The notes under the pieces are model-generated. The model saw only the letters and a list, made by a program, of their open reading frames with translations, had not been told where the DNA came from and did not search any database. From Centipeda periodontii DSM 2778 (GTDB taxonomy: Bacteria; Bacillota; Negativicutes; Selenomonadales; Selenomonadaceae): a stretch of DNA of 47,404 nucleotides. Below, piece after piece: positions 143-9,422 of this stretch; position 1 is the first letter of the stretch, and every line of letters begins with the position of its first letter. The stretch lies in contig NZ_GL892076.1 of the NCBI RefSeq assembly GCF_000213975.1, forward strand, positions 2,168,761-2,216,164, given 5' to 3'. The translations under genes and the position numbers were made by a program.

Positions 143-1540
143 TCATGTATGGCGCTCCACCGTAAATCGCGCGAGTGCAATCGCCTCCTTCGGCTGAATG
201 CGCGCCTTCTCACGCGCGATGGCAATCTGGTCCTCTGCCGTATCGATTCCCGCAAGATCGGGCAGCAGCAGCCCGCGCCGATTGTCCGTCAGGCTCTTCA
301 CGATCACCCCGTAGATTTTCGGATTGAGCTGTGCCGCCGATTCGATTGGCTCGGGCATACTCAGCACGTCCACCGAGTAGACGAGGCGGTTCAGCTCGTG
401 CTCCTCAATCGGCTCAAAGCGTCCGTCATGCGCCGCCGCTGAGACAGCATTGTAGAAAATCTCCTCGGCGAGCGTTTTCTGCGCGGGCAAGAACGTCCCG
501 ATGCATCCGCGCAGCTTTCCGTATTTCTTGATCGAGACAAATGCCCCCGCACGTTTTTCGATGAGTTCCTGCGGCAGATCAGAGGGCAGCGATGCGAATG
601 AATGCGTTCGTACAAAGTGCTCTATACTCATACGCGCAAGCCGCACGTAGTCATCCTCCGCCGCGCGCAGTTCGGCAATCGCCGCATCCTCCGCACGAAC
701 GAGCCGTGCCGCGTAGTCGGTCCCCGCATCCCGCCCCGTCACGGTAAAGGACGCGACGGCATAGCCCACACCGAACGGAGCCTCATAGCTGTGCAGCTTC
801 GCATCCGTCGCCGCGCGGTCAAGCGCACCCGCAAGCACCCACAGCCCGTTCAGCCCGCAGTGTCCCGCCGCCTCGGCAAAGCTGCCGGGAATCTGCAAGA
901 GCGACAGGAAGTCGCCCGTCTTCATGAATGCTGTGCAGAGTTCATCGAACTCCGCGCCCTCGGGCGCAAAGCCGTTTGCACCGCCCTCCATGAGTCGATG
1001 CGAAAGATCTCCGCTTGCGATGCAGATCGTCCGACGTCCGAGCCGCTCCGCCGCCGCCGCAATCGCCTGACCGAGCAGGGCATGTGTATGCGCGGGCAGT
1101 CCCGCGATGCCGATGCGGACGAATTTGGTCGGCGCATCGCCGAGGTATTCACTCAGGAAGAAGAGCGGGATCATTGTGCCGTGATCGAGTGCCGGATTTT
1201 TCTCCCCGAGCGTCCCCGCAGGAATGTTCTTCTCTGACGCAGTAGAGGAGAGCGCGCGTACAAATTCCTCGTCGTATTCAATCCCGATGGATATCTCAGG
1301 ATGCCCGAACGCGGCGAAGTTCCCCTCCGCGCCCGCACCCGGCGAGATGTGAAAGAAATCATCGTACGCCGTCGCGTGTGGGCTGATGATGACGACCGTA
1401 TCGGGGCGCATCTCCGCCGCCGCGCGCATCGTCTCGTGATACGCTCGAACGGTCGCGGCAATCTCCCCCTCCCGTCCCTGCCCGATGGTTGGAATGATGA
1501 GCGGCGGATGCGGAACGGCATAGGCGGCAAGGATGGACAT
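143..1540 (-). CDS. Memo-like / AMMECR1 fusion protein (AmmeMemoRadiSam A+B)
   Basis: A 465-residue two-domain protein. Residues about 5-265 are a Memo/class III extradiol dioxygenase-like domain (AmrB type), starting with a PHPPL histidine motif and containing the ASGDLSH segment. Residues about 297-465 are an AMMECR1 domain (AmrA type) with the hallmark LRGCIGT. In many anaerobes these occur as separate genes beside a radical SAM protein (AmrS). Here A and B are fused and no radical SAM partner is visible; it could lie beyond the left edge. The biochemical role of the family is not settled. I chose ATG at 1540 because AGGGAG lies 8 nt upstream; the GTG at 1549 is too close to it. The gene is preceded by the tRNA-Leu terminator, so it probably has its own short promoter. 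Confidence 0.88.
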   Translation of the reverse strand: MSILAAYAVPHPPLIIPTIGQGREGEIAATVRAYHETMRAAAEMRPDTVVIISPHATAYDDFFHISPGAGAEGNFAAFGHPEISIGIEYDEEFVRALSSTASEKNIPAGTLGEKNPALDHGTMIPLFFLSEYLGDAPTKFVRIGIAGLPAHTHALLGQAIAAAAERLGRRTICIASGDLSHRLMEGGANGFAPEGAEFDELCTAFMKTGDFLSLLQIPGSFAEAAGHCGLNGLWVLAGALDRAATDAKLHSYEAPFGVGYAVASFTVTGRDAGTDYAARLVRAEDAAIAELRAAEDDYVRLARMSIEHFVRTHSFASLPSDLPQELIEKRAGAFVSIKKYGKLRGCIGTFLPAQKTLAEEIFYNAVSAAAHDGRFEPIEEHELNRLVYSVDVLSMPEPIESAAQLNPKIYGVIVKSLTDNRRGLLLPDLAGIDTAEDQIAIAREKARIQPKEAIALARFTVERHT

Positions 1541-1554
1541 AATGCTCACTCCCT

Positions 1555-1607: not shown

Positions 1608-1692
1608 TGGTGCGGATGAAGGGGGTCGAACCCATACGCCTTGCGGCACTGGATCCTAAGTCCAGCGCGTCTGCCAGTTCCGCCACATCCGC
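1608..1692 (-). tRNA. tRNA-Leu (anticodon TAG)
   Basis: The minus strand folds as an 85-nt class II tRNA with encoded CCA (1608-1610). The acceptor stem is GCGGATG pairing with CATCCGC. The anticodon stem is CTGGA/TCCAG with loop CTTAGGA, giving anticodon TAG. A long variable arm (around TGCCGCAAGGCGT) and a TTCGA T-loop agree with leucine. It lies only 27 nt from the end of the Shango helicase gene, which enters the tRNA from its 5' side. Confidence 0.95.
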
Positions 1693-1719
1693 ATGTGAAA
1701 ACTCAGCAAGCGTATTCTA

Positions 1720-3975
1720 TCATGACGACGCGGGGCTGTCAATCCGTGCATTTGACCACGCGAGCACCGCCGCACGCATCTGCTTCACATCCAGAACACC
1801 ATACGCGAATCCGCGCCGCACAAGCTCTGTCGGGAGAAATTCATCGTATTTGTCAAAGATCGGCACCTCATCGGGATAGAGCAGTTCCATCGCATCGAGT
1901 TTCTCAGCCGCTTCCTCCGCGAGAATGTAAAAGAACTCTGCGGACGACACCTTCATCGTGAACTGCATAAAGTACGGGCGCATCGACGCAAAGCCGCGCA
2001 GTCCGAGACGCGCGCCGCAGCGAATCCGAAGAAACCGCTCAAGCGCGAGAAAGGCATAGCTGCCGAGCCACGGCAGAAGCGCGTACATCTCGCCGCCGAG
2101 CGGGATGAGCACATCCTCCGCCGCGCGTGAGTGCCGCGCCGTATCGCGCGCCTGCGTGAGGCGTGCCACAGCATTTTTCAGCAGATAGGGTGGGATCAGT
2201 TCCTCGCGCAAGACCTGCCGCATACGGCGCAGGATACGCGTGTGGATATCGCCGGGGCACTCGCCGAAGTAGGCGGGCACATTCCCCTTCACCATCTCGC
2301 AGTAGACGAGGTGACGCTTACGGTCAACCTCGAGGACGCGCCAGACATGCCCCGCGATGGCGATTTTCTCCCCGACGGGCGGTGGCGTGACAATCGTTCC
2401 GATCTCCTGCGACGCGCTGCGAACGGTGTACTCCTCGTTCTCCTGAAACACGCCGTAGAAGCGGAAGGACTGCACGATGCGCTCCCCCGCAAGCCCGACG
2501 ATGAGCCCGCCGCGCTCCGTCGTCTGCAAATGTTCCTGTGCAATCAGATGCCGCAGGAGGATTCGGTAGTCCTCCTGTGTAATGCGATGAAAGACGTGCA
2601 GGGAGAGCACACGATCCGCAAGCGCACGCGGGGACAGTTCCCCGCAGGATGCGGCGACGCTCATGGTCTGATGGTAGAGCAGACTGAACGGCAGGCGGTC
2701 AAGGCGCGGCGGCTCAACCCAGCGTTCCTCAAGATAGAGCTGGATGAGGGCAATTCCCTGCAGCAGTTTCCACGGAATTGTCGCAGGCAGGAGGGCACGC
2801 GCCTCGGGCGCGTCCTCGCGCACGACGAAGTGCATTTCCTGCGGCTGTCCGCGCCGCCCCGTCCGTCCCATGCGCTGAAGGAACGACGAGACCGTCCACG
2901 GCGCATCGATCTGAAAGGCACGCTCAAGACGCCCGATGTCGATGCCAAGTTCGAGTGTCGCCGTCGTGCACGTTGTAAAGAGGCTGTCTTCGTCCTTCAT
3001 GCGCACCTCTGCCGTCTCGCGGAATGCGGCGGAGAGATTTCCGTGATGGATGAGGAAGCGGTCGGGCTCATGCTGTTTCTCGCAATAGGAGCGCAGGGTT
3101 GTCGTCACCGCCTCGCACTCCTCGCGCGAGTTGACGAAGATCAGGCATTTCTTCCCGCGTGTATGGGCAAAGATATAGCCAAGCCCGGGGTCTGCATGTT
3201 CCGGCGGCGTATCCGTCGGCGCGCCGATGACATTCTCCACCGCAAGGTCATCGCGCCCCTCCCCCGCCTGCGTGTCGCGCACATAGAAATGCTCAAGGGA
3301 AAGCCGCCATCTGCTCCCCTTTGCCTCGATCTGCGGCACAAGCGTCCTGCGCCCCGTCCCCGCCGCAAGGAAATCCCCCGCACGCCGCGCATCGCCGATG
3401 GTCGCCGAGAGTCCGATGCGGCGCGGCTGCACGCCCGCAATGCGTGAGAGGCGTTCGATCAGACAGAGCGTCTGCCCGCCGCGGTCCCCGCGCAGGAGCG
3501 AATGCAGCTCGTCAATCACGACGAAGCGCAGATCGCCAAAGAGCCTTGGGATCGCCATGTGACGATGCAGGAGCAGCGCCTCAAGCGACTCCGGCGTGAT
3601 CTGCAGGATGCCCGACGGTCGCTTCATCAACCGCGCCTTATGCGTCTGCCCCACATCCCCGTGCCAGTGCCAAACGGGGATGTCCGCCCTGTGGCAAAGC
3701 TCTGTCAGACGCTCGAACTGATCGTTGATGAGGGCTTTCAGAGGTCCAATGTAGATACAGCCGACGGAGGTCGGCGGGTTCTCGTGAAAGAGCGTGATAA
3801 TCGGAAAAAACGCCGCCTCGGTCTTGCCGGATGCGGTCGATGCCGTCAGGAGCACATGATCGTCCGTCCCAAAGATCGCCTCCGCCGCCGCAATCTGGAT
3901 GCCGCGCAGACTCTGCCACTCCTGCCCGTATATATAGTCGCGCACAAAGGGTGCATAGCGGTCGAATACGCTCAT
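1720..3975 (-). CDS. sngC: Shango helicase (Lhr-like DEAD/DEAH-box, SngC)
   Basis: A 751-residue superfamily 2 helicase and third gene of the defence operon. Visible motifs are Walker A ASTASGKT (45-52), GPLKALINDQ (motif Ia), DELH (155-158), SAT (190-192) and QRMGRTGRRGQ (motif VI). A long C-terminal Lhr-like extension follows. It resembles BrxHI of type 2 BREX, but the pairing with a BrxD-like ATPase and a TerB protein matches Shango. The ATG overlaps the stop codon of the ATPase gene as ATGA, so translation is probably coupled. Likely role: ATP-driven work on phage nucleic acid; the mechanism is not known to me. The frame is intact with no missing motif, so the system looks functional. The gene ends 27 nt before tRNA-Leu, with no terminator of its own between them. 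Confidence 0.9.
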   Translation of the reverse strand: MSVFDRYAPFVRDYIYGQEWQSLRGIQIAAAEAIFGTDDHVLLTASTASGKTEAAFFPIITLFHENPPTSVGCIYIGPLKALINDQFERLTELCHRADIPVWHWHGDVGQTHKARLMKRPSGILQITPESLEALLLHRHMAIPRLFGDLRFVVIDELHSLLRGDRGGQTLCLIERLSRIAGVQPRRIGLSATIGDARRAGDFLAAGTGRRTLVPQIEAKGSRWRLSLEHFYVRDTQAGEGRDDLAVENVIGAPTDTPPEHADPGLGYIFAHTRGKKCLIFVNSREECEAVTTTLRSYCEKQHEPDRFLIHHGNLSAAFRETAEVRMKDEDSLFTTCTTATLELGIDIGRLERAFQIDAPWTVSSFLQRMGRTGRRGQPQEMHFVVREDAPEARALLPATIPWKLLQGIALIQLYLEERWVEPPRLDRLPFSLLYHQTMSVAASCGELSPRALADRVLSLHVFHRITQEDYRILLRHLIAQEHLQTTERGGLIVGLAGERIVQSFRFYGVFQENEEYTVRSASQEIGTIVTPPPVGEKIAIAGHVWRVLEVDRKRHLVYCEMVKGNVPAYFGECPGDIHTRILRRMRQVLREELIPPYLLKNAVARLTQARDTARHSRAAEDVLIPLGGEMYALLPWLGSYAFLALERFLRIRCGARLGLRGFASMRPYFMQFTMKVSSAEFFYILAEEAAEKLDAMELLYPDEVPIFDKYDEFLPTELVRRGFAYGVLDVKQMRAAVLAWSNARIDSPASS

Positions 3976-5303
3976 AGCTCGAACTCCGCGAACTGCGCGC
4001 TGATCTCCGCCCCCTCCACCTCATTTTGCGCGTAGGAAAATTCATCCGAGCCGAGCAGATCAGCGAGTTTTAATGTCGGGTTCTGGTAGATAATGTCGAG
4101 CACCTGAATGAAGTCGCGGATGACCTCGCGCGGCGTGATGTGTGTATCCGCACCGATGCGCCCAAACTCGATGCGGATGAAGTCCGCAAGATCATCCTGC
4201 GTGACAATCTGCGCGTATCCGTAAAGGTCCGCATGAATCGCAGCCAGTTTTTCGATCAGCACAAGCATTTCCTCATGCGTGAGCGGTGAGAGCCGTATCA
4301 CGGGCGAGAGCAGGTCGCGGTGCGCCCCCGCAAAGCGCCCCTCGGCGAGGCGAGAGCGCAGAGCCTCGTAGCTGTAGACGCCGCGCCGTGTATCCTCCAT
4401 ACACGCGGGCGTGCCGCAGAGGATCATGCCGAGGTACTGCGCGCGCCCCTGCATCGCATCGTTATACATCGTGAGGATCTTCTCGTAGTTGTACTGGCGC
4501 GTGACCGCGTGCGGGATCTTGTAGATGTTCACCAGCTCGTCGATGAGGATGAGCATGCCCGCATAGCCTGCCTGCCGCAGGAACGCGGCGAAGAGTTTCA
4601 GATACTCGTACCAGTCGTCGTCCGTGATGATGATGTTCACGCCGAGATCATGCCGCGCCTCGGTCTTCGTCGTATACTCCCCGCGGAACCAGCGCGCGAT
4701 CTGCGCCCGCTTTTCATCATCGCCGTCGCGGTAGGCATGGTAGTAGAGGGTCAGCAGACGCGTAAAATCAAAGCCGTGCACGAGATCGTTCAGCCCATAG
4801 ATAATCGCGGCAATGCGCCGATCGACGGCAGCGGGAAAATCGGGATGCTCCGGCGCGATGCCGTCCTCCGTCACGATCTCCTGCTGCACACGGCTGATCC
4901 AGCGATCGAGGATGAGCGTCAGTGCACCGCCCTCGGGCGTCGTCTTTGTCGCCATATTGCGGATGAGCTCACGATATGTCGCAAGCCCCTGCCCGCGCGT
5001 CCCCTGCAGGCGGCGTTCGGGCGAGAGGTCGGCGTCCACGACGACGAAGTTCTTCGCCATAACATAGCTGCGGATCGTCTGCAGCAGGAAGCTCTTGCCG
5101 CTGCCGTAGCGTCCGACAATGAAGCGGAAGGATGCCCCGCCGCCCTCGATCATCTCCACATCGGAGAGCAGCGCCTCGATCTCGCTGCGCCGCCCGACGG
5201 TAATATATGGGAGACCGATGCGCGGCACAACACCGCCCTTGAGCGCATTTACGAGCGTCTGCGCAATGCGGCGCGGAATTTTCTTCGGTTCATTCGCTGC
5301 CAT
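3972..5303 (-). CDS. sngB: Shango P-loop ATPase (BrxD/DUF2791-like, SngB)
   Basis: A 443-residue ATP-binding protein of the DUF2791 family, called BREX-system ATP-binding protein (BrxD) in annotation pipelines. Walker A is GRYGSGKS (64-71). A Walker B-like LILIDELV lies near the middle, followed by a sensor-like ILCGTPA segment. The start overlaps the TerB gene by 14 nt and the end overlaps the helicase by 4 nt, so the three proteins are very likely made together. None of the BREX core genes (pglX methylase, pglZ, brxC) are nearby, so I do not call this BREX. By domain it is an AAA-like motor or switch, probably working with the helicase; that is inference. Confidence 0.88.
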   Translation of the reverse strand: MAANEPKKIPRRIAQTLVNALKGGVVPRIGLPYITVGRRSEIEALLSDVEMIEGGGASFRFIVGRYGSGKSFLLQTIRSYVMAKNFVVVDADLSPERRLQGTRGQGLATYRELIRNMATKTTPEGGALTLILDRWISRVQQEIVTEDGIAPEHPDFPAAVDRRIAAIIYGLNDLVHGFDFTRLLTLYYHAYRDGDDEKRAQIARWFRGEYTTKTEARHDLGVNIIITDDDWYEYLKLFAAFLRQAGYAGMLILIDELVNIYKIPHAVTRQYNYEKILTMYNDAMQGRAQYLGMILCGTPACMEDTRRGVYSYEALRSRLAEGRFAGAHRDLLSPVIRLSPLTHEEMLVLIEKLAAIHADLYGYAQIVTQDDLADFIRIEFGRIGADTHITPREVIRDFIQVLDIIYQNPTLKLADLLGSDEFSYAQNEVEGAEISAQFAEFEL

Positions 5304-6792
5304 GCAGATACCTTTCTATTAGTTCGTCCCGATAATCGGGAACAACGGCGGGCGGATCGCCCTCGATCACCGTGTCCTCGAAGTCATCATACAGTTTTTC
5401 GTTGATTCCGTCGACGAGGACAGAGAGCATATGCCCCTCTGAGCGCACCCATACGATGCTTTCAGCGGCGAGGAGTGCACGCAGAAGCCGCAGCTCCACC
5501 GCATCCAAAACCTCGGATACGTCTGCTCCCTCATCAACAAGCCTCTCATCAGCGGGTGCGGGAGGAACAGAGGGCTCTGCCGCAGAGACGGGCAATATCA
5601 GTTCCTCTCCCTCCTCCACAACCAGCCGCTCCTGCGTTACATCGGCATCCGCACGAATCCGTGCAAGCTTCGAAAAGTCCAGCCGCACGCGCCGCGCTTC
5701 TGCCGCTTTCTGCTCCCTAAAAAAGGTTTCGATCTCCTCTTGTATGATTTTCTCCTGCCACTTCTTCAGCTTCGGCGGCTGAATCGCCGCAAGATCAAAA
5801 CGTGCACGCAATGCGGCATCAATCCCGCGCAGGATTGCCCCGAGACGTTGAGGAGCACGGTCTGCACGCTCATACGAGTGCAGCGCCCAATAGCCGCTCA
5901 CGCACTCGTAGCGGCGCAGCGGATGAATCTCATAGACACGATCCGGCTCCTCCTTGGGCGGCTGAAATACCGCCGATGAAAAGAGGCGCATGGGAACGGT
6001 CTGCTCCACGGCAATGAGATCGGCAAACGCGCTGATTTGACGGTGTTTCTCGTAGTATTCCGTCACGCGATCGAGTACGCGAAGCGTGACCGCATTCACC
6101 TCATCTGTATGCGCACGGTAGAGCTTCGACCGCTCAAGCCGATAGGAGGAGAGCACACAGACCGCTGCCATGACTTCCGCCGCCGTATGCTCCGCGCGAT
6201 GAAGCATCACATCGATCGCTTCATCCTGTTTCTGACGCGCAAGCGCATCCCCGCGCCATGTCATCAACTTGGGATCAAGCCCATAGTAGATAACGAACTC
6301 GTCTTCCCACTCCGCGATATAGCGTCCAATCTGCGGGTCAAGCACACGATAGCTCTCGCAGAATGCGTGCAGCTTCTCATAGGCATCCTGCGCGTCCCTG
6401 CATCCGATGAGATGCAGCAGTTCGTAGACGTAGAGGGATGCGTATGACATCCCCTTCTTTTCTACAATTCCGCGCCGCAGAGCCGTTCGCCATGTGAAGT
6501 AGCCGCGCAGCTGTGCATTCGAGAGCGAATCATACGTCGGAAAATATTGATTGACCACGCCTTTATAAACATAGTCATCCTCATAGTTCACCATCAGCCG
6601 CGCTTGTTTCAGAAAAAGTTCCGCACGCGACTGCCAAGAGTCATGTGATGTCGTGACGAGTGAGCGCATAGCTCGCAGCAGCTTCGGTGTCGGTTGCTTT
6701 GGCGTCGGCGTGGGAGCCTTCGGAATTGCTTCATCGCGATAAAGATGTGCTGCTAAGCGCCGCAAGATCTCTGCCGCCCATCCGTTCCCCAT
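5290..6792 (-). CDS. sngA: Shango TerB-domain protein (TerB_N/TerB_C, SngA)
   Basis: A 500-residue protein with a TerB N-terminal-type domain (about 45-210, including YFTWRTALRRG). A helical middle region follows, then a TerB_C-type domain near the end (VWVRSEGHMLSVLVDG and following residues). An acidic, proline-containing linker (about 405-440) separates the last two parts. TerB-like modules are linked to stress and phage responses as well as tellurite. The ATPase and helicase neighbours point to Shango rather than metal resistance. The reading frame stays open to 6981, but I chose ATG 6792. It has GGAGG 6 nt upstream, and a promoter and terminator occupy the sequence above it. First gene of the operon. 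Confidence 0.87.
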   Translation of the reverse strand: MGNGWAAEILRRLAAHLYRDEAIPKAPTPTPKQPTPKLLRAMRSLVTTSHDSWQSRAELFLKQARLMVNYEDDYVYKGVVNQYFPTYDSLSNAQLRGYFTWRTALRRGIVEKKGMSYASLYVYELLHLIGCRDAQDAYEKLHAFCESYRVLDPQIGRYIAEWEDEFVIYYGLDPKLMTWRGDALARQKQDEAIDVMLHRAEHTAAEVMAAVCVLSSYRLERSKLYRAHTDEVNAVTLRVLDRVTEYYEKHRQISAFADLIAVEQTVPMRLFSSAVFQPPKEEPDRVYEIHPLRRYECVSGYWALHSYERADRAPQRLGAILRGIDAALRARFDLAAIQPPKLKKWQEKIIQEEIETFFREQKAAEARRVRLDFSKLARIRADADVTQERLVVEEGEELILPVSAAEPSVPPAPADERLVDEGADVSEVLDAVELRLLRALLAAESIVWVRSEGHMLSVLVDGINEKLYDDFEDTVIEGDPPAVVPDYRDELIERYLHGSE

Positions 6793-6829
6793 CACACACC
6801 TCCGTCTGTCTGTTCGATTTACTTTCCCT

Positions 6830-6857
6830 ATTTTACTACGAATCGCGAAAATAGCAA
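6830..6857 (-). promoter_or_regulatory. Promoter of the Shango operon
   Basis: Minus strand: TTGCTA (6852-6857), a 16-nt spacer, then TAAAAT (6830-6835). It lies about 40 nt ahead of the sngA start and just downstream of the terminator hairpin at 6875-6914, so the defence operon appears to be an independent transcription unit. Predicted by eye. Confidence 0.55.
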
Positions 6858-6874
6858 GCGTACGAAATGTACAA

Positions 6875-6914
6875 GAAAATACGCCTCCTGCCGGGCAGCA
6901 GGAGGCGTATTTTC
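6875..6914 (-). terminator. Strong terminator between nagZ and Shango
   Basis: A perfect 17-bp stem (6875-6891 with 6898-6914) around a 6-nt loop ends in A4/T4, so it can act on both strands. On the minus strand it ends leftward transcripts from nagZ before the Shango promoter. The rest of the 6793-7114 gap (322 nt) holds the promoter and otherwise nothing I recognise. Confidence 0.8.
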
Positions 6915-7114: not shown

Positions 7115-8302
7115 TTACGGGGTCAGGCCATGCGTCAGTTTTGCTTTTATGATCCTTCTTACCGATTCGTTGATTCTTTCTTCACTGATTTGTCCATTCT
7201 GCAAAGCGTTGTATATCCCCATATAAGCATCTTCAGCATGCGCAAGTTCGTGACAGACCAACACGATATCCGCGCCAGCTTGAACCGCTTTCAATCCCGC
7301 TTCGCGGAATGTGAGATGATTCGCTACCGCGCCCATTTCCAGATCATCCGTAATGACAATACCTTGATAGCCCAAATCATTTCGCAGGAGATCGGTAATG
7401 ATGGTACGCGACAGGCTGGCAGCATTTTCTGCATCAAAGGCAGGATATTTGAGATGTCCCACCATGACCATATAATCGAGATCTTTTCCCTTGCCCGTGT
7501 TATGGATCATTTCTCTAAAGGGCATGATGTCCGCTTTTTGCAGTTCTTCTTCACTGGCTTCTATCGAGGAAATTTCTTTGTGAGAATCCACAGTTCCCCT
7601 GCCTATGCCTGGAAAATGTTTCAGGGCATAGATAATCCCTGCGGAATGATACCCATTCCCTATGGATTTGATAAAAGCAAGGACTTCATAGGGATCTGTG
7701 CTGTAAGATCGCCCCTCCGATGCTCCCACATCAGCAACAGGAGCAAAATTCACGTTGATCCCCAAGGACATCAACTCCTCAGCCAAGGAGACAGCAAGCC
7801 CTTCGGCAAACTCCGGGCTTTCCTTCCCGACGTCTTCCGCCGCAGGTGGGGCAGGGATAAAGCTTTCCCCCCGCACCACTGCCCCACCTTCCTCATCAAT
7901 GGCGATAAAGAGAGGCAGTTTTTCATTTGCACCCGATTGAAGATCCGCGATAAGCTTCTTGGTCTGATCCTTTGATTCCAAATTCCGATCAAAGAGAATG
8001 ATTCCGCCGTAGTGGAATTGTCCCAGAACATAGCGTGAGTCATTATCAAACGCCTTCCCCGGAACACCGACCATCACCATCTGTCCGATTCTCTCTGTGA
8101 TGGACATGTCGGACAGAATCTCCTCCACTTGTTCGTCCACTGTAAGTTGACGCCCATCGTGCTGTGCATCTCTCCCCCTCTCCATCGCAGGTTTATGATT
8201 GATTACATTTGCTTTCAAGACATATAGCGAACCGCCCAGTATAGCCAGCAAAAAAACGACTGCCCCCAATAAGCCTACAGCAATTTTATATTTTTTTCTC
8301 AT
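7115..8302 (-). CDS. nagZ: Membrane-anchored GH3 beta-N-acetylhexosaminidase (NagZ type)
   Basis: A 395-residue glycoside hydrolase family 3 protein. One N-terminal hydrophobic helix (about residues 6-26) follows MRKK and acts as a signal anchor or uncleaved signal. The GH3 fold carries the NagZ signature KHFPGIGRGTVDSH, with the family's catalytic His/Asp region. ITDDLEMGAV supplies the expected nucleophile Asp. It should remove N-acetylglucosamine from muropeptides outside the cytoplasmic membrane. I chose ATG 8302 with GGGAG about 5 nt ahead; upstream codons to 8371 run through a hairpin and are not conserved in type. The base composition is lower in GC than the genes to either side, as for the lipoprotein gene upstream. 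The gene ends 200 nt before the strong terminator at 6875. Confidence 0.87.
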   Translation of the reverse strand: MRKKYKIAVGLLGAVVFLLAILGGSLYVLKANVINHKPAMERGRDAQHDGRQLTVDEQVEEILSDMSITERIGQMVMVGVPGKAFDNDSRYVLGQFHYGGIILFDRNLESKDQTKKLIADLQSGANEKLPLFIAIDEEGGAVVRGESFIPAPPAAEDVGKESPEFAEGLAVSLAEELMSLGINVNFAPVADVGASEGRSYSTDPYEVLAFIKSIGNGYHSAGIIYALKHFPGIGRGTVDSHKEISSIEASEEELQKADIMPFREMIHNTGKGKDLDYMVMVGHLKYPAFDAENAASLSRTIITDLLRNDLGYQGIVITDDLEMGAVANHLTFREAGLKAVQAGADIVLVCHELAHAEDAYMGIYNALQNGQISEERINESVRRIIKAKLTHGLTP

Positions 8303-8332
8303 AAAAACTCCCATATACATCTGGAAAGCTAA

Positions 8333-8364
8333 GGCAGCGCTGAATTTATCAGCGCTGCCTTCTC
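8333..8364. terminator. Hairpin between lipoprotein gene and nagZ
   Basis: AAGGCAGCGCTGA pairs exactly with TCAGCGCTGCCTT around a short ATTTA loop. It may terminate the lipoprotein transcript, though no good T run follows on the minus strand. The TAAGG...CTGA start and the following TTCTCGACA resemble the ends of the repeat family described at 11362-11528, so it may be a derivative of that repeat. Confidence 0.5.
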
Positions 8365-8378
8365 GACACACTCTATCA

Positions 8379-9014
8379 CTACTTCACTTTCACTTCGAAT
8401 TCCCCGATCAGCCAACGACCTTCGCTCTTAGACAAGGTAGCCTTGCCTAAAAAAACTTGATTCGAAATGCGCCCGTTGATCTTGTCTTGAGAGTTCAGCT
8501 GATAGCTTAGAACTACTTGGGAAGGCGTTTCGGAAATAATCTTTATATTGCTCACGTCATTGGAAACGGTGGTGTTATAACTCTGTGAGAAAGATTCGTA
8601 AGTCCCCAGCTGGTTCTGCATCTCCCATGTCAGGGAGTTATAGGCCGCCGACATTTTGCCGGCAGCGATGTTATGATAATAGCCCACCAAGGTGTTGACA
8701 GCCTCCTTGGTTCCTTGATTAGAATTTGCCGCTTCACTGGCGGCAGCGACTCCGGCTGCCGCGCCGCCTGCGACCATTGCTCCACCGGCCTTGGCAAGGT
8801 TGCTTTTGCCCGCAGATGGTGCAGCGCTGCGGGAGGATTTTGCTTGATTGTCGCCGACGGCGGCTCCGGCGGCATGTTTTACTCCCTCTTCCACAACCTC
8901 TTGTGCCACTTCTTTCTTGGCAGCATTGAAAATCTTAGAGACGACTTTGCAGCCGGTGAGCGGGAAAACGAGCATGACTGCCAATATACAGGCAGCCGGG
9001 CGTAAGAACTTCAT
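8379..9014 (-). CDS. Putative lipoprotein, function unknown
   Basis: A 211-residue protein with a clear lipoprotein signal: a basic start, a hydrophobic stretch and the lipobox LTGC (Cys at about residue 22). The mature part begins with a Lys/Glu-rich helix and continues into an Ala/Gly/Ser-rich low-complexity linker (about 45-100). The C-terminal 105 residues (from about NTLVGYYHNI) look like a small alpha+beta NTF2-like domain ending in a run of beta strands (RWLIGEFEVKVK). Such folds often bind ligands or stabilise surface proteins; no function can be assigned. ATG 9014 has GGAGG 8 nt upstream. The stop is followed by the 8333-8364 hairpin and then nagZ, so the two could be co-expressed. 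Confidence 0.75.
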   Translation of the reverse strand: MKFLRPAACILAVMLVFPLTGCKVVSKIFNAAKKEVAQEVVEEGVKHAAGAAVGDNQAKSSRSAAPSAGKSNLAKAGGAMVAGGAAAGVAAASEAANSNQGTKEAVNTLVGYYHNIAAGKMSAAYNSLTWEMQNQLGTYESFSQSYNTTVSNDVSNIKIISETPSQVVLSYQLNSQDKINGRISNQVFLGKATLSKSEGRWLIGEFEVKVK

Positions 9015-9031
9015 TTCTGTTCCCTCCTATA

Positions 9032-9059
9032 CGGACTTCATTTTATCAGTGCTTCCTTA
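9032..9059. repeat. Dispersed repeat end, copy 1
   Basis: A 27-28 bp unit (GGACTTCATTTTATCAGTGC and then TTCCTTA), nearly identical to copies at 9471-9497 and 11502-11528, all in the same orientation. This copy sits between the Rpn remnant and the RBS of the lipoprotein gene. It appears to be the terminal sequence of the MITE-like family. Confidence 0.75.
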
Positions 9060-9092
9060 GCGACTCAACATACAGAGCACCATTTTCTCTCC

Positions 9093-9422
9093 TTATGCCC
9101 CAGTCGTTCCCGCCAGTCGTTCGACCTCTTCCTGCGATAGCTGTGTTGCTTCCGCAATCTGGGAAAGCGTGAGTTTTCCCAAAGCGAGCAATGCCGTCGC
9201 CGTCCGGCGAGCCGACTCGATACGACCTTCGACACGACCTTCCATGCGCCCCTCAACACGGCCTTCAGCACGCCCCTCAATAAGTCCTGCCTCACGCCCC
9301 TCCATACGCCCCTCTTCCATTTTCTTCTCTCCGAATTTTTCCATCAGTTCGCACATGGCATTTACCCCCTCTGCTTCTGCCTTAAAGTAATCGGCTCGTT
9401 TGGCAAGTTCTTTGTAATTCAT
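9093..9422 (-). pseudogene. Rpn-type nuclease/transposase remnant (C-terminal part)
   Basis: A 109-residue frame whose sequence matches the C-terminal tail typical of Rpn (PD-(D/E)XK, recombination-promoting nuclease) proteins. It has YFKAEAEGVNAMCELMEKFG, then a run of EGR-x repeats (GRMEGREAGLIEGRAEGRVE and following). It closes with a helix like LTLSQIAEATQLSQEEVERL. The catalytic PD-(D/E)XK domain, which normally precedes this by about 200 residues, is absent. Upstream of the ATG the frame stays open only to 9455, still with Rpn-like residues (CETPEQ). It then hits a TAG inside the flanking repeat. It is therefore a truncated copy joined to the repeat end at 9471-9497. The ATG may still be translated, but I see no convincing RBS. 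Confidence 0.75.

What the first reader, a model, noticed from the sequence alone, without database searches (positions are those of the whole stretch)
1720..6792. Complete Shango anti-phage operon
Three overlapping genes encode TerB_N/TerB_C, BrxD-like ATPase (GRYGSGKS) and Lhr-like helicase (DELH, QRMGRTGRRG). This is the published Shango architecture, so the system is described. What may be new is its occurrence in a Negativicute-like genome and its mechanism: the ATPase/helicase pair is shared with BREX type 2 (BrxD-BrxHI), while a TerB protein takes the place of the PglX/PglZ modules. All catalytic motifs are intact and it has its own promoter and an upstream terminator.
Basis: partly seen in the sequence, partly recalled or inferred. 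Interest (0 to 1): 0.7.

Follow-up and report, generated by a model that had tools for sequence, protein, structure and literature searches.

The report
Genus-wide Shango defence operon in Selenomonas
The three genes are a complete copy of Shango, a published bacterial anti-phage system of unknown mechanism; by sequence it is an ordinary member, but in this group of oral Selenomonas it sits at one fixed chromosomal site in 13 of 14 species and is inherited like a core gene set rather than a mobile defence island.

Summary
Three overlapping minus-strand genes (sngA 5290-6792, sngB 3972-5303, sngC 1720-3975) match PADLOC SngA, SngB and SngC (2.5e-73, 3.2e-188, 1.1e-272) with catalytic motifs intact. 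Shango is already described: a new member of a known kind.

New is how the locus behaves. SngB is in 13 of 14 species of the genus but 2 of 175 other genomes of the family. All 13 copies lie beside the same tRNA-Leu and MEMO gene, and their trees track rpoB. The species without it has an empty site and is nested among the carriers (AU p 0.0035): one old gain and one loss. In 12 of 13, sngC ends inside the promoter of that tRNA. In 12 species pairs dN/dS is 0.013-0.098 for sngB, 0.042-0.157 for sngC and 0.141-0.262 for sngA.

Proposed mechanism (inferred): SngA recognises, SngB loads, and the Lhr-like helicase SngC blocks phage DNA; no nuclease or methylase domain was detected. BREX is not supported: PglZ is absent. 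Caveat: Cas1 is equally widespread here.

The parts
5290..6792 (-). sngA: TerB_N/TerB_C protein, 500 aa; predicted mostly helical, C-terminal part (426-500) resembling a winged helix
   Evidence: PADLOC SngA 2.5e-73; Pfam TerB_N, TerB_C; model pLDDT 88.4; winged-helix-like matches at Z 4-5 only
3972..5303 (-). sngB: AAA+ ATPase related to BrxC/BrxD, 443 aa; Walker A GRYGSGKS (K70), LILIDE at 251
   Evidence: PADLOC SngB 3.2e-188; Pfam BrxC_BrxD 2e-169; motif positions
1720..3975 (-). sngC: Lhr-like superfamily 2 helicase, 751 aa; GKT K51, DELH at 155, QRMGRTGRRG at 367
   Evidence: PADLOC SngC 1.1e-272; PDB sequence matches Lhr 5v9x and MrfA 6znp; Foldseek Lhr 1.5e-18
6799..6803 (-). ribosome-binding site of sngA (GGAGG)
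   Evidence: read directly from the sequence
6830..6857 (-). probable sngA promoter TTGCTA-16-TAAAAT
   Evidence: scan, 9 of 12; 8 promoter-like sites in the region against 2.7 (sd 1.8) in shuffles
6875..6914 (-). 18-pair palindromic hairpin upstream of the operon, probable terminator; homology of the empty site ends next to it
   Evidence: -32.4 kcal/mol, z -10.4; conserved in the genus, also in the species without Shango; not listed by the terminator scan
1714..1742 (-). tRNA-Leu promoter TTGACA-17-TAGAAT; the last codons and the stop (1722-1720) of sngC lie inside it
   Evidence: best promoter match of the region, 11 of 12; present with spacer 17-18 in 14 of 14 genus genomes
1608..1692 (-). 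tRNA-Leu, fixed downstream neighbour
   Evidence: ARAGORN, Rfam 1e-08; a tRNA-Leu in 14 of 14 genus loci
143..1549 (-). MEMO/AMMECR1 two-domain protein (LigB + AMMECR1), fixed neighbour, not part of Shango
   Evidence: Pfam; found in 14 of 14 genus genomes

Best explanation
This is a complete, intact Shango operon (SngA-SngB-SngC). It entered the ancestor of this oral Selenomonas genus once, between a hairpin and a tRNA-Leu promoter, and has been kept there by vertical descent under strong purifying selection, with one loss. Most likely mode of action (inferred, not shown): SngA, a TerB-type protein with a DNA-binding-like C-terminus, is the faster-evolving recognition part. SngB, an AAA+ ATPase of the BrxD kind, is the loader or switch. 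SngC, an Lhr-like helicase, is the motor that translocates on or unwinds phage DNA and stops its replication. No nuclease or methylase domain was detected in the three proteins, so direct cutting or marking of DNA is not expected.
For: Identity: PADLOC and Pfam; architecture; intact motifs. Core, vertical: SngB in 13 of 14 genus species against 2 of 175 other family genomes (Fisher 3.5e-17). SngA in the same 13 of 14; SngC in 13 of 13 fetched loci. tRNA-Leu and MEMO beside it in 13 of 13. Distances correlate with rpoB: sngA 0.90, sngB 0.87, sngC 0.88, memo 0.89 (11 species; at most 1 of 2000 permutations as high). One clade in the SngB tree (support 100). Empty site in G004, which is nested when five outgroups root the rpoB tree; the 13 carriers as one clade are rejected (AU p 0.0035). 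Mechanism: SngC model matches Lhr with ssDNA (1.5e-18) and MrfA; SngA 426-500 aligns with winged-helix domains. The PA14 Shango lowers plaquing 10-100 fold in PAO1 (PMC10250203, passages).
Against: No activity was measured in Selenomonas. The winged-helix matches are weak (Z at most 5.0; no Foldseek hit at E <= 0.001), and the top row is another fold, SAMHD1 (Z 5.1, residues 194-369). SngA has no domain with dN/dS above 0.39, so its speed may be relaxed constraint and not an arms race. The SngC model is only moderate (pLDDT 72.3). Cas1 is also in 13 of 14 genus genomes, so near-universality is not unique to Shango here. The upstream neighbour differs in G010, and the G003 contig ends there. 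With codon positions 1 and 2 only, the place of G004 relative to G010/G011 is open, though it stays inside G003/G013 (95/94).
Confidence: 0.85

Rival explanations
1. Part of a BREX type 2 (Pgl) locus or a degenerate BREX that kept BrxD and BrxHI.
For: SngB and SngC are homologous to BrxD and BrxHI (PADLOC 164.9 and 390 bits).
Against: Shango models score far higher (624.3 and 905.1 bits); SngB is below NCBIfam's BrxD cut-off (165.1 of 350); PglZ PF08665 is absent from the own genome, while the control search finds it in 2 of 14 control genomes; the operon begins with a TerB protein.
Confidence: 0.02
2. A domesticated operon: Shango genes now serve the cell's own DNA maintenance (replication or repair) in this genus, which is why they are core and constrained.
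For: Fixed site in 13 of 14 species and rpoB-like distances; for G000-G012 sngB is as constrained as a transporter permease (dN/dS 0.013 against 0.028); SngC resembles Lhr and MrfA, which are DNA repair helicases (recalled).
Against: One species lost it, so it is not essential; all three subunits are kept with the sequence of a tested defence system; no repair gene among the ten neighbouring proteins scanned.
Confidence: 0.15
3. Abortive infection: SngA is a toxin or effector set free when SngB-SngC senses phage DNA, as HamA is in Hachiman.
For: A helicase sensor with a separate effector is known from Hachiman (PMC12278908, start of abstract in the listing; passages); SngA is the least conserved subunit in 12 of 12 pairs. 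SAMHD1, a dNTPase, tops the VIA list for SngA (Z 5.1).
Against: No enzyme domain in SngA by Pfam or PDB sequence search. The SAMHD1 match is weak, and no histidine in that stretch is conserved (best 34% of 58 rows; only D325 reaches 98%), so its HD active site is not there. None of this excludes an unknown activity.
Confidence: 0.25
4. A mobile defence island inserted at the tRNA-Leu gene, like the P. aeruginosa hotspot copies.
For: It lies beside a tRNA gene; the empty site shows it was an insertion.
Against: It lies at the 5' side of the tRNA, not at the 3' end usually used by integrases (recalled); no integrase domain in the ten neighbouring proteins scanned; same site in 13 species with rpoB-like distances.
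Confidence: 0.05

Closest known systems
Shango (SngABC) of Pseudomonas aeruginosa PA14 (also reported from E. coli)
   Same: Three genes: TerB-like protein, ATPase, DEAD/DEAH helicase (PMC10250203, passages); strong PADLOC matches to all three.
   Different: There it sits in a hypervariable defence hotspot among many systems; here it keeps one site through a whole genus. Activity of this copy is untested.
BREX type 2 BrxD-BrxHI pair
   Same: Homologous ATPase and helicase.
   Different: Separate subfamilies by score; no PglZ in the genome; a TerB protein instead. That the pair belongs to BREX type 2 is recalled.
Lhr and MrfA (YprA) superfamily 2 helicases
   Same: Best solved relatives of SngC by sequence and by model.
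   Different: A published tree puts SngC with BrxHI, DruE and DpdJ in a potentially distinct antiphage clade (PMC12278908, passage).
Other TerB-containing defence systems (Bunzi, Dionysus)
   Same: A TerB-type domain (PMC10952713, passage; PMC12926258, passages).
   Different: Not compared by sequence here.

Membership tests
Shango | SngA with TerB_N/TerB_C | tested here: met
   PADLOC SngA 2.5e-73, model positions 54-525 of 528; TerB_N 95.8 bits (cut-off 25), TerB_C 76.4 bits (cut-off 26.3)
Shango | SngB ATPase with intact Walker A | tested here: met
   PADLOC SngB 3.2e-188; K70 invariant in 81 of 81 rows
Shango | SngC DEAD/DEAH helicase with intact motifs | tested here: met
   PADLOC SngC 1.1e-272; motif positions
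Shango | three genes in one operon | tested here: met
   same strand, overlaps of 14 and 4 nt; transcription as one unit inferred
Shango | anti-phage activity | not testable with these tools
   reported in PAO1 for the PA14 copy (PMC10250203), not for this copy
BREX type 2 | PglZ phosphatase present | tested here: not met
   PF08665: 0 matches in the own genome; control search finds it in 2 of 14 control genomes
BREX type 2 | BrxD above its curated cut-off | tested here: not met
   NF033438 165.1 bits, cut-off 350
BREX type 2 | PglX methyltransferase present | not tested
   not searched genome-wide; no methylase among the ten neighbouring proteins scanned
Mobile island integrated at a tRNA 3' end | position at the tRNA 3' end | tested here: not met
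   the operon lies on the 5' side of the tRNA
Mobile island integrated at a tRNA 3' end | integrase gene in the element | tested here: inconclusive
   none in the ten neighbouring proteins scanned; other genes were not scanned
Winged-helix DNA-binding domain (SngA 426-500) | fold match to winged-helix structures | tested here: inconclusive
   OxyR, BenM, AceR, YhaJ, MetR, ModE, ORC1 and ORC2 rows at Z 4.0-4.9, rmsd 2.9-6.7 over 64-78 residues
HD-domain dNTPase (SAMHD1-like, SngA 194-369) | conserved His-Asp active site | tested here: not met
   VIA row Z 5.1, but no conserved His in the stretch over 58 rows

The most novel reading that the evidence does not exclude
In oral Selenomonas, Shango has stopped being an exchangeable defence cassette. 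It has become a genus-core chromosomal function, physically fused to a tRNA-Leu promoter, with a strongly constrained ATPase/helicase engine and a faster-changing SngA recognition subunit; it may serve both phage exclusion and the cell's own DNA maintenance.
Probability: 0.2. Interest if true: 0.6.

Novelty: new member of a known kind. Interest (0 to 1): 0.38.

Why it matters
Shango's mechanism is unknown in the papers seen. A set of 13 orthologous operons that diverged together at one site is a clean natural series: an engine (SngB, SngC) that changes little and a partner (SngA) whose amino-acid-changing rate is 2-23 times that of SngB (dN ratios of the 12 pairs; 6-17 for the six nearest pairs with the window's species). 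Subunit swaps between these species would show directly which protein sets phage specificity. It is also an example of a defence operon inherited like a core gene, with one natural loss (G004) for comparison.

Tried and rejected
BREX was tested and rejected. Recombination as the cause of SngA's divergence: for G000-G012 dS is alike in sngA 0.63, sngB 0.67 and sngC 0.59, which speaks against it. Other pairs are less clean: sngA against sngB dS is 1.05 and 0.61 (G000-G006), 1.85 and 0.95 (G000-G010), 1.67 and 0.84 (G000-G013), 0.19 and 0.43 (G009-G001), so exchange of sngA alleles in some lineages is not excluded. Positive selection in a part of SngA: no domain exceeds dN/dS 0.39; no codon-model test was available. 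A gain after G004 branched off, without loss: rejected with outgroups. A SAMHD1-like SngA: rejected for lack of conserved His.

Rows dropped: memo lacks G008 (wrong start called) and G011 (another ORF was picked), leaving 12 rows; abcPerm has 11 rows. The distance correlations use the 11 species common to all genes. The rpoB tree is wrong because antisense ORFs were picked in some genomes; redone. The models used the window protein with 57 of 70 (SngA) and 45 of 62 (SngC) usable relatives.

No result: PDB sequence searches with SngA alone, as a profile, and with SngB; Foldseek with SngA at E <= 0.001; SngB in phage records at E 1e-20. The plasmid search (685 records, all under 60% identity) was not split into Shango and BREX copies and is not used. 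Literature: 'Shango' with 'Selenomonas' gave 3 papers, whose titles in the listing concern colorectal cancer or streptococci (not opened). A wider search gave 96 papers, 15 listed, none of those 15 with Selenomonas. A search on vertical inheritance of defence systems was only looked at as a listing. So no report of this locus was found in that library, which lacks most subscription journals.
Full report
WHAT IS THERE. Three minus-strand genes overlap by 14 and 4 nt: sngA 5290-6792, sngB 3972-5303, sngC 1720-3975. PADLOC names them SngA (2.5e-73, model positions 54-525 of 528), SngB (3.2e-188, 4-438 of 439) and SngC (1.1e-272, 5-715 of 720). Pfam finds TerB_N and TerB_C in SngA, BrxC_BrxD in SngB, DEAD and Helicase_C in SngC. 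The operon has a ribosome-binding site, a weak promoter match and an 18-pair hairpin upstream, which the terminator scan did not list.

NOT BREX. Shango models outscore BREX models by 624 to 165 bits (SngB) and 905 to 390 bits (SngC). SngB misses NCBIfam's BrxD cut-off (165 of 350 bits), and PglZ is absent from the own genome. PglX was not searched.

DISTRIBUTION. SngB is present in 13 of 14 species of the genus (the twelve others 85-98% identical to the window's) and in 2 of 175 other genomes of the family, both of one genus, g13 (Fisher 3.5e-17). SngA is in the same 13 of 14. Outside the family the best SngB relatives kept come mainly from Oscillospiraceae and other Clostridia (78% identical and below). 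Of the 80 loci kept of 290, sngA was found in 77 and sngC in 75; in several the contig ends first. In the SngB tree the 13 Selenomonas rows form one clade (support 100), apart from the g13 copy G025, which sits near a Lachnospiraceae row on a long branch. So the genus gained it once, probably from outside its family (inference).

CONTROLS ON 'CORE'. Type I HsdM is in 7 of 14 genus genomes, which is patchy. Cas1 is in 13 of 14, so a nearly universal defence gene is not unique to Shango here; whether Cas1 keeps one site was not tested.

SITE. In 13 of 13 the operon ends beside the same tRNA-Leu and MEMO/AMMECR1 gene; G003 has about 1.3 kb with one extra ORF between sngC and the tRNA. On the other side the ABC-transporter genes follow in 11 of 13; in G010 the neighbours differ, and the G003 contig ends about 700 bases on, where the sequence still matches the common site. 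G004 lacks Shango: homology with the other species runs through the upstream hairpin and stops; about 190 bases of other sequence follow, then the tRNA-Leu promoter. tblastn of sng proteins against this stretch gave two clear hits (1.2e-16 and 1.4e-18), both to the untranslated upstream part that over-long ORF calls of G000 and G006 include, not to sngA proper; the rest shown had E of 0.002 or more (output cut at 3000 characters).

GAIN AND LOSS. With five outgroup genomes rooting the rpoB tree, G003/G013 branch first (87/91 for the other twelve), then G010/G011, then G004 (92/91). With codon positions 1 and 2 only, G004 still lies inside G003/G013 (95/94), its place relative to G010/G011 being open. 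A tree with the 13 carriers as one clade is rejected (AU p 0.0035). One gain and one loss is therefore the simplest history; some outgroup rows are long or of odd composition, as the program warned.

A GENE END INSIDE A PROMOTER. The best promoter match of the region, TTGACA-17-TAGAAT, lies at 1742-1714 (minus) and by position belongs to tRNA-Leu. The promoter is present with a spacer of 17-18 in 14 of 14 genus genomes, with or without Shango. In 11 of 13 carriers the sngC stop codon abuts its -10 box, in G013 the stop falls in the -35 box, and in G003 sngC ends 1.3 kb away. So the operon was set directly against an existing promoter, and the end of sngC was fitted to it (inference).

RATES. 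For G000-G012 (dN, dS, ratio): sngA 0.134, 0.63, 0.21; sngB 0.008, 0.67, 0.013; sngC 0.025, 0.59, 0.042; transporter permease 0.017, 0.60, 0.028; memo 0.021, 0.14, 0.155. Over the 12 pairs computed the ratio is 0.141-0.262 for sngA, 0.013-0.098 for sngB and 0.042-0.157 for sngC, and SngA is the least conserved of the three in 12 of 12. Its ratio is about 1.2-2.3 times that of memo in the ten pairs where both exist, so it is fast mainly in comparison with its own partners. Within SngA the rate is spread out; the N-terminal tail and the linker 373-425 are fastest and nothing exceeds 0.39. Outside Selenomonas SngB is 69-78%, SngC 60-78% and SngA 27-52% identical to the window's, partial genes included. 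Distances in sngA, sngB and sngC correlate with rpoB at 0.90, 0.87 and 0.88, as the neighbour memo does at 0.89 (11 species).

STRUCTURE. SngA is predicted with pLDDT 88.4, mostly helical with a small strand region at 262-308 and a low-confidence linker at 394-423. No PDB sequence relative was found at E <= 1. Residues 426-500, which hold several invariant positions, align with winged-helix domains of LysR regulators, ModE and the origin proteins ORC1 and ORC2 at Z 4.0-4.9. The top row of that list is SAMHD1 over residues 194-369 (Z 5.1), without a conserved histidine to support it. Both are suggestive at most. SngC (pLDDT 72.3) matches Lhr bound to ssDNA (1.5e-18) and MrfA bound to DNA. A published tree places SngC with BrxHI, DruE and DpdJ in a potentially distinct antiphage clade (PMC12278908, passage).

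MECHANISM. Shown: identity, intact motifs, relatedness, conservation. Inferred: SngA recognises; SngB loads or switches; SngC moves on DNA and blocks phage replication. No nuclease or methylase domain was detected, so restriction is unlikely unless host nucleases help. I put about 0.4 on this order of roles and 0.25 on an abortive design with SngA as effector. The 0.85 given for the best explanation refers to identity and inheritance. The PA14 copy lowers plaquing 10-100 fold for many phages in PAO1 (PMC10250203, passages); the papers seen give no mechanism (passages).

VERDICT. A confirmed, ordinary member of Shango by sequence, with an unusual history: a genus-core, single-site, vertically kept operon.

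Noticed in passing
L087:5599-8172 (Oscillibacter MAG); also L071, L073, L080, L082, L089, L108: In relatives from Clostridia the junction between sngB and sngC is often opened by extra DNA (gap over 150 bp in 18 of 65 loci), with different passenger ORFs (they look like GNAT, NUDIX and GIY-YIG proteins by eye; no profile search was run). In L087 four passengers are separated by two scars, each the first 27-29 nt of sngC followed within 4-7 nt by the last 24-25 nt of sngB (81-90% identical, E 5e-6 to 0.03), as if circularised cassettes had been inserted one after another. One MAG only; an assembly artefact is not excluded.
   Followed up: partly
window 1714-1742: The sngC stop codon lies inside a near-consensus tRNA-Leu promoter, abutting the -10 box in 11 of 13 species; in G013 the stop falls in the -35 box.
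   Followed up: yes
window 143-1549: The MEMO/AMMECR1 genes of G000 and G012 have dS 0.14 while sng and permease genes have about 0.6: a likely recent exchange. 12 of 14 genus genomes hold a second, 47-54% identical paralogue elsewhere.
   Followed up: no
window 7115-9422: A glycoside hydrolase family 3 gene, a 211-aa protein without a Pfam match and a small gene lie between sngA and the ABC transporter; the first two had no counterpart in the other loci compared.
   Followed up: no
L139, L129, L138: Gene order varies in a few relatives: sngA-sngC-sngB in L139; sngC about 6 kb from sngB in L129 (opposite strand) and L138, with a similar block of genes between.
   Followed up: no
G000:C1:2002932 and G000:C1:291916: The genome has two Cas1 genes; Cas1 occurs in 13 of 14 genus genomes.
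   Followed up: no
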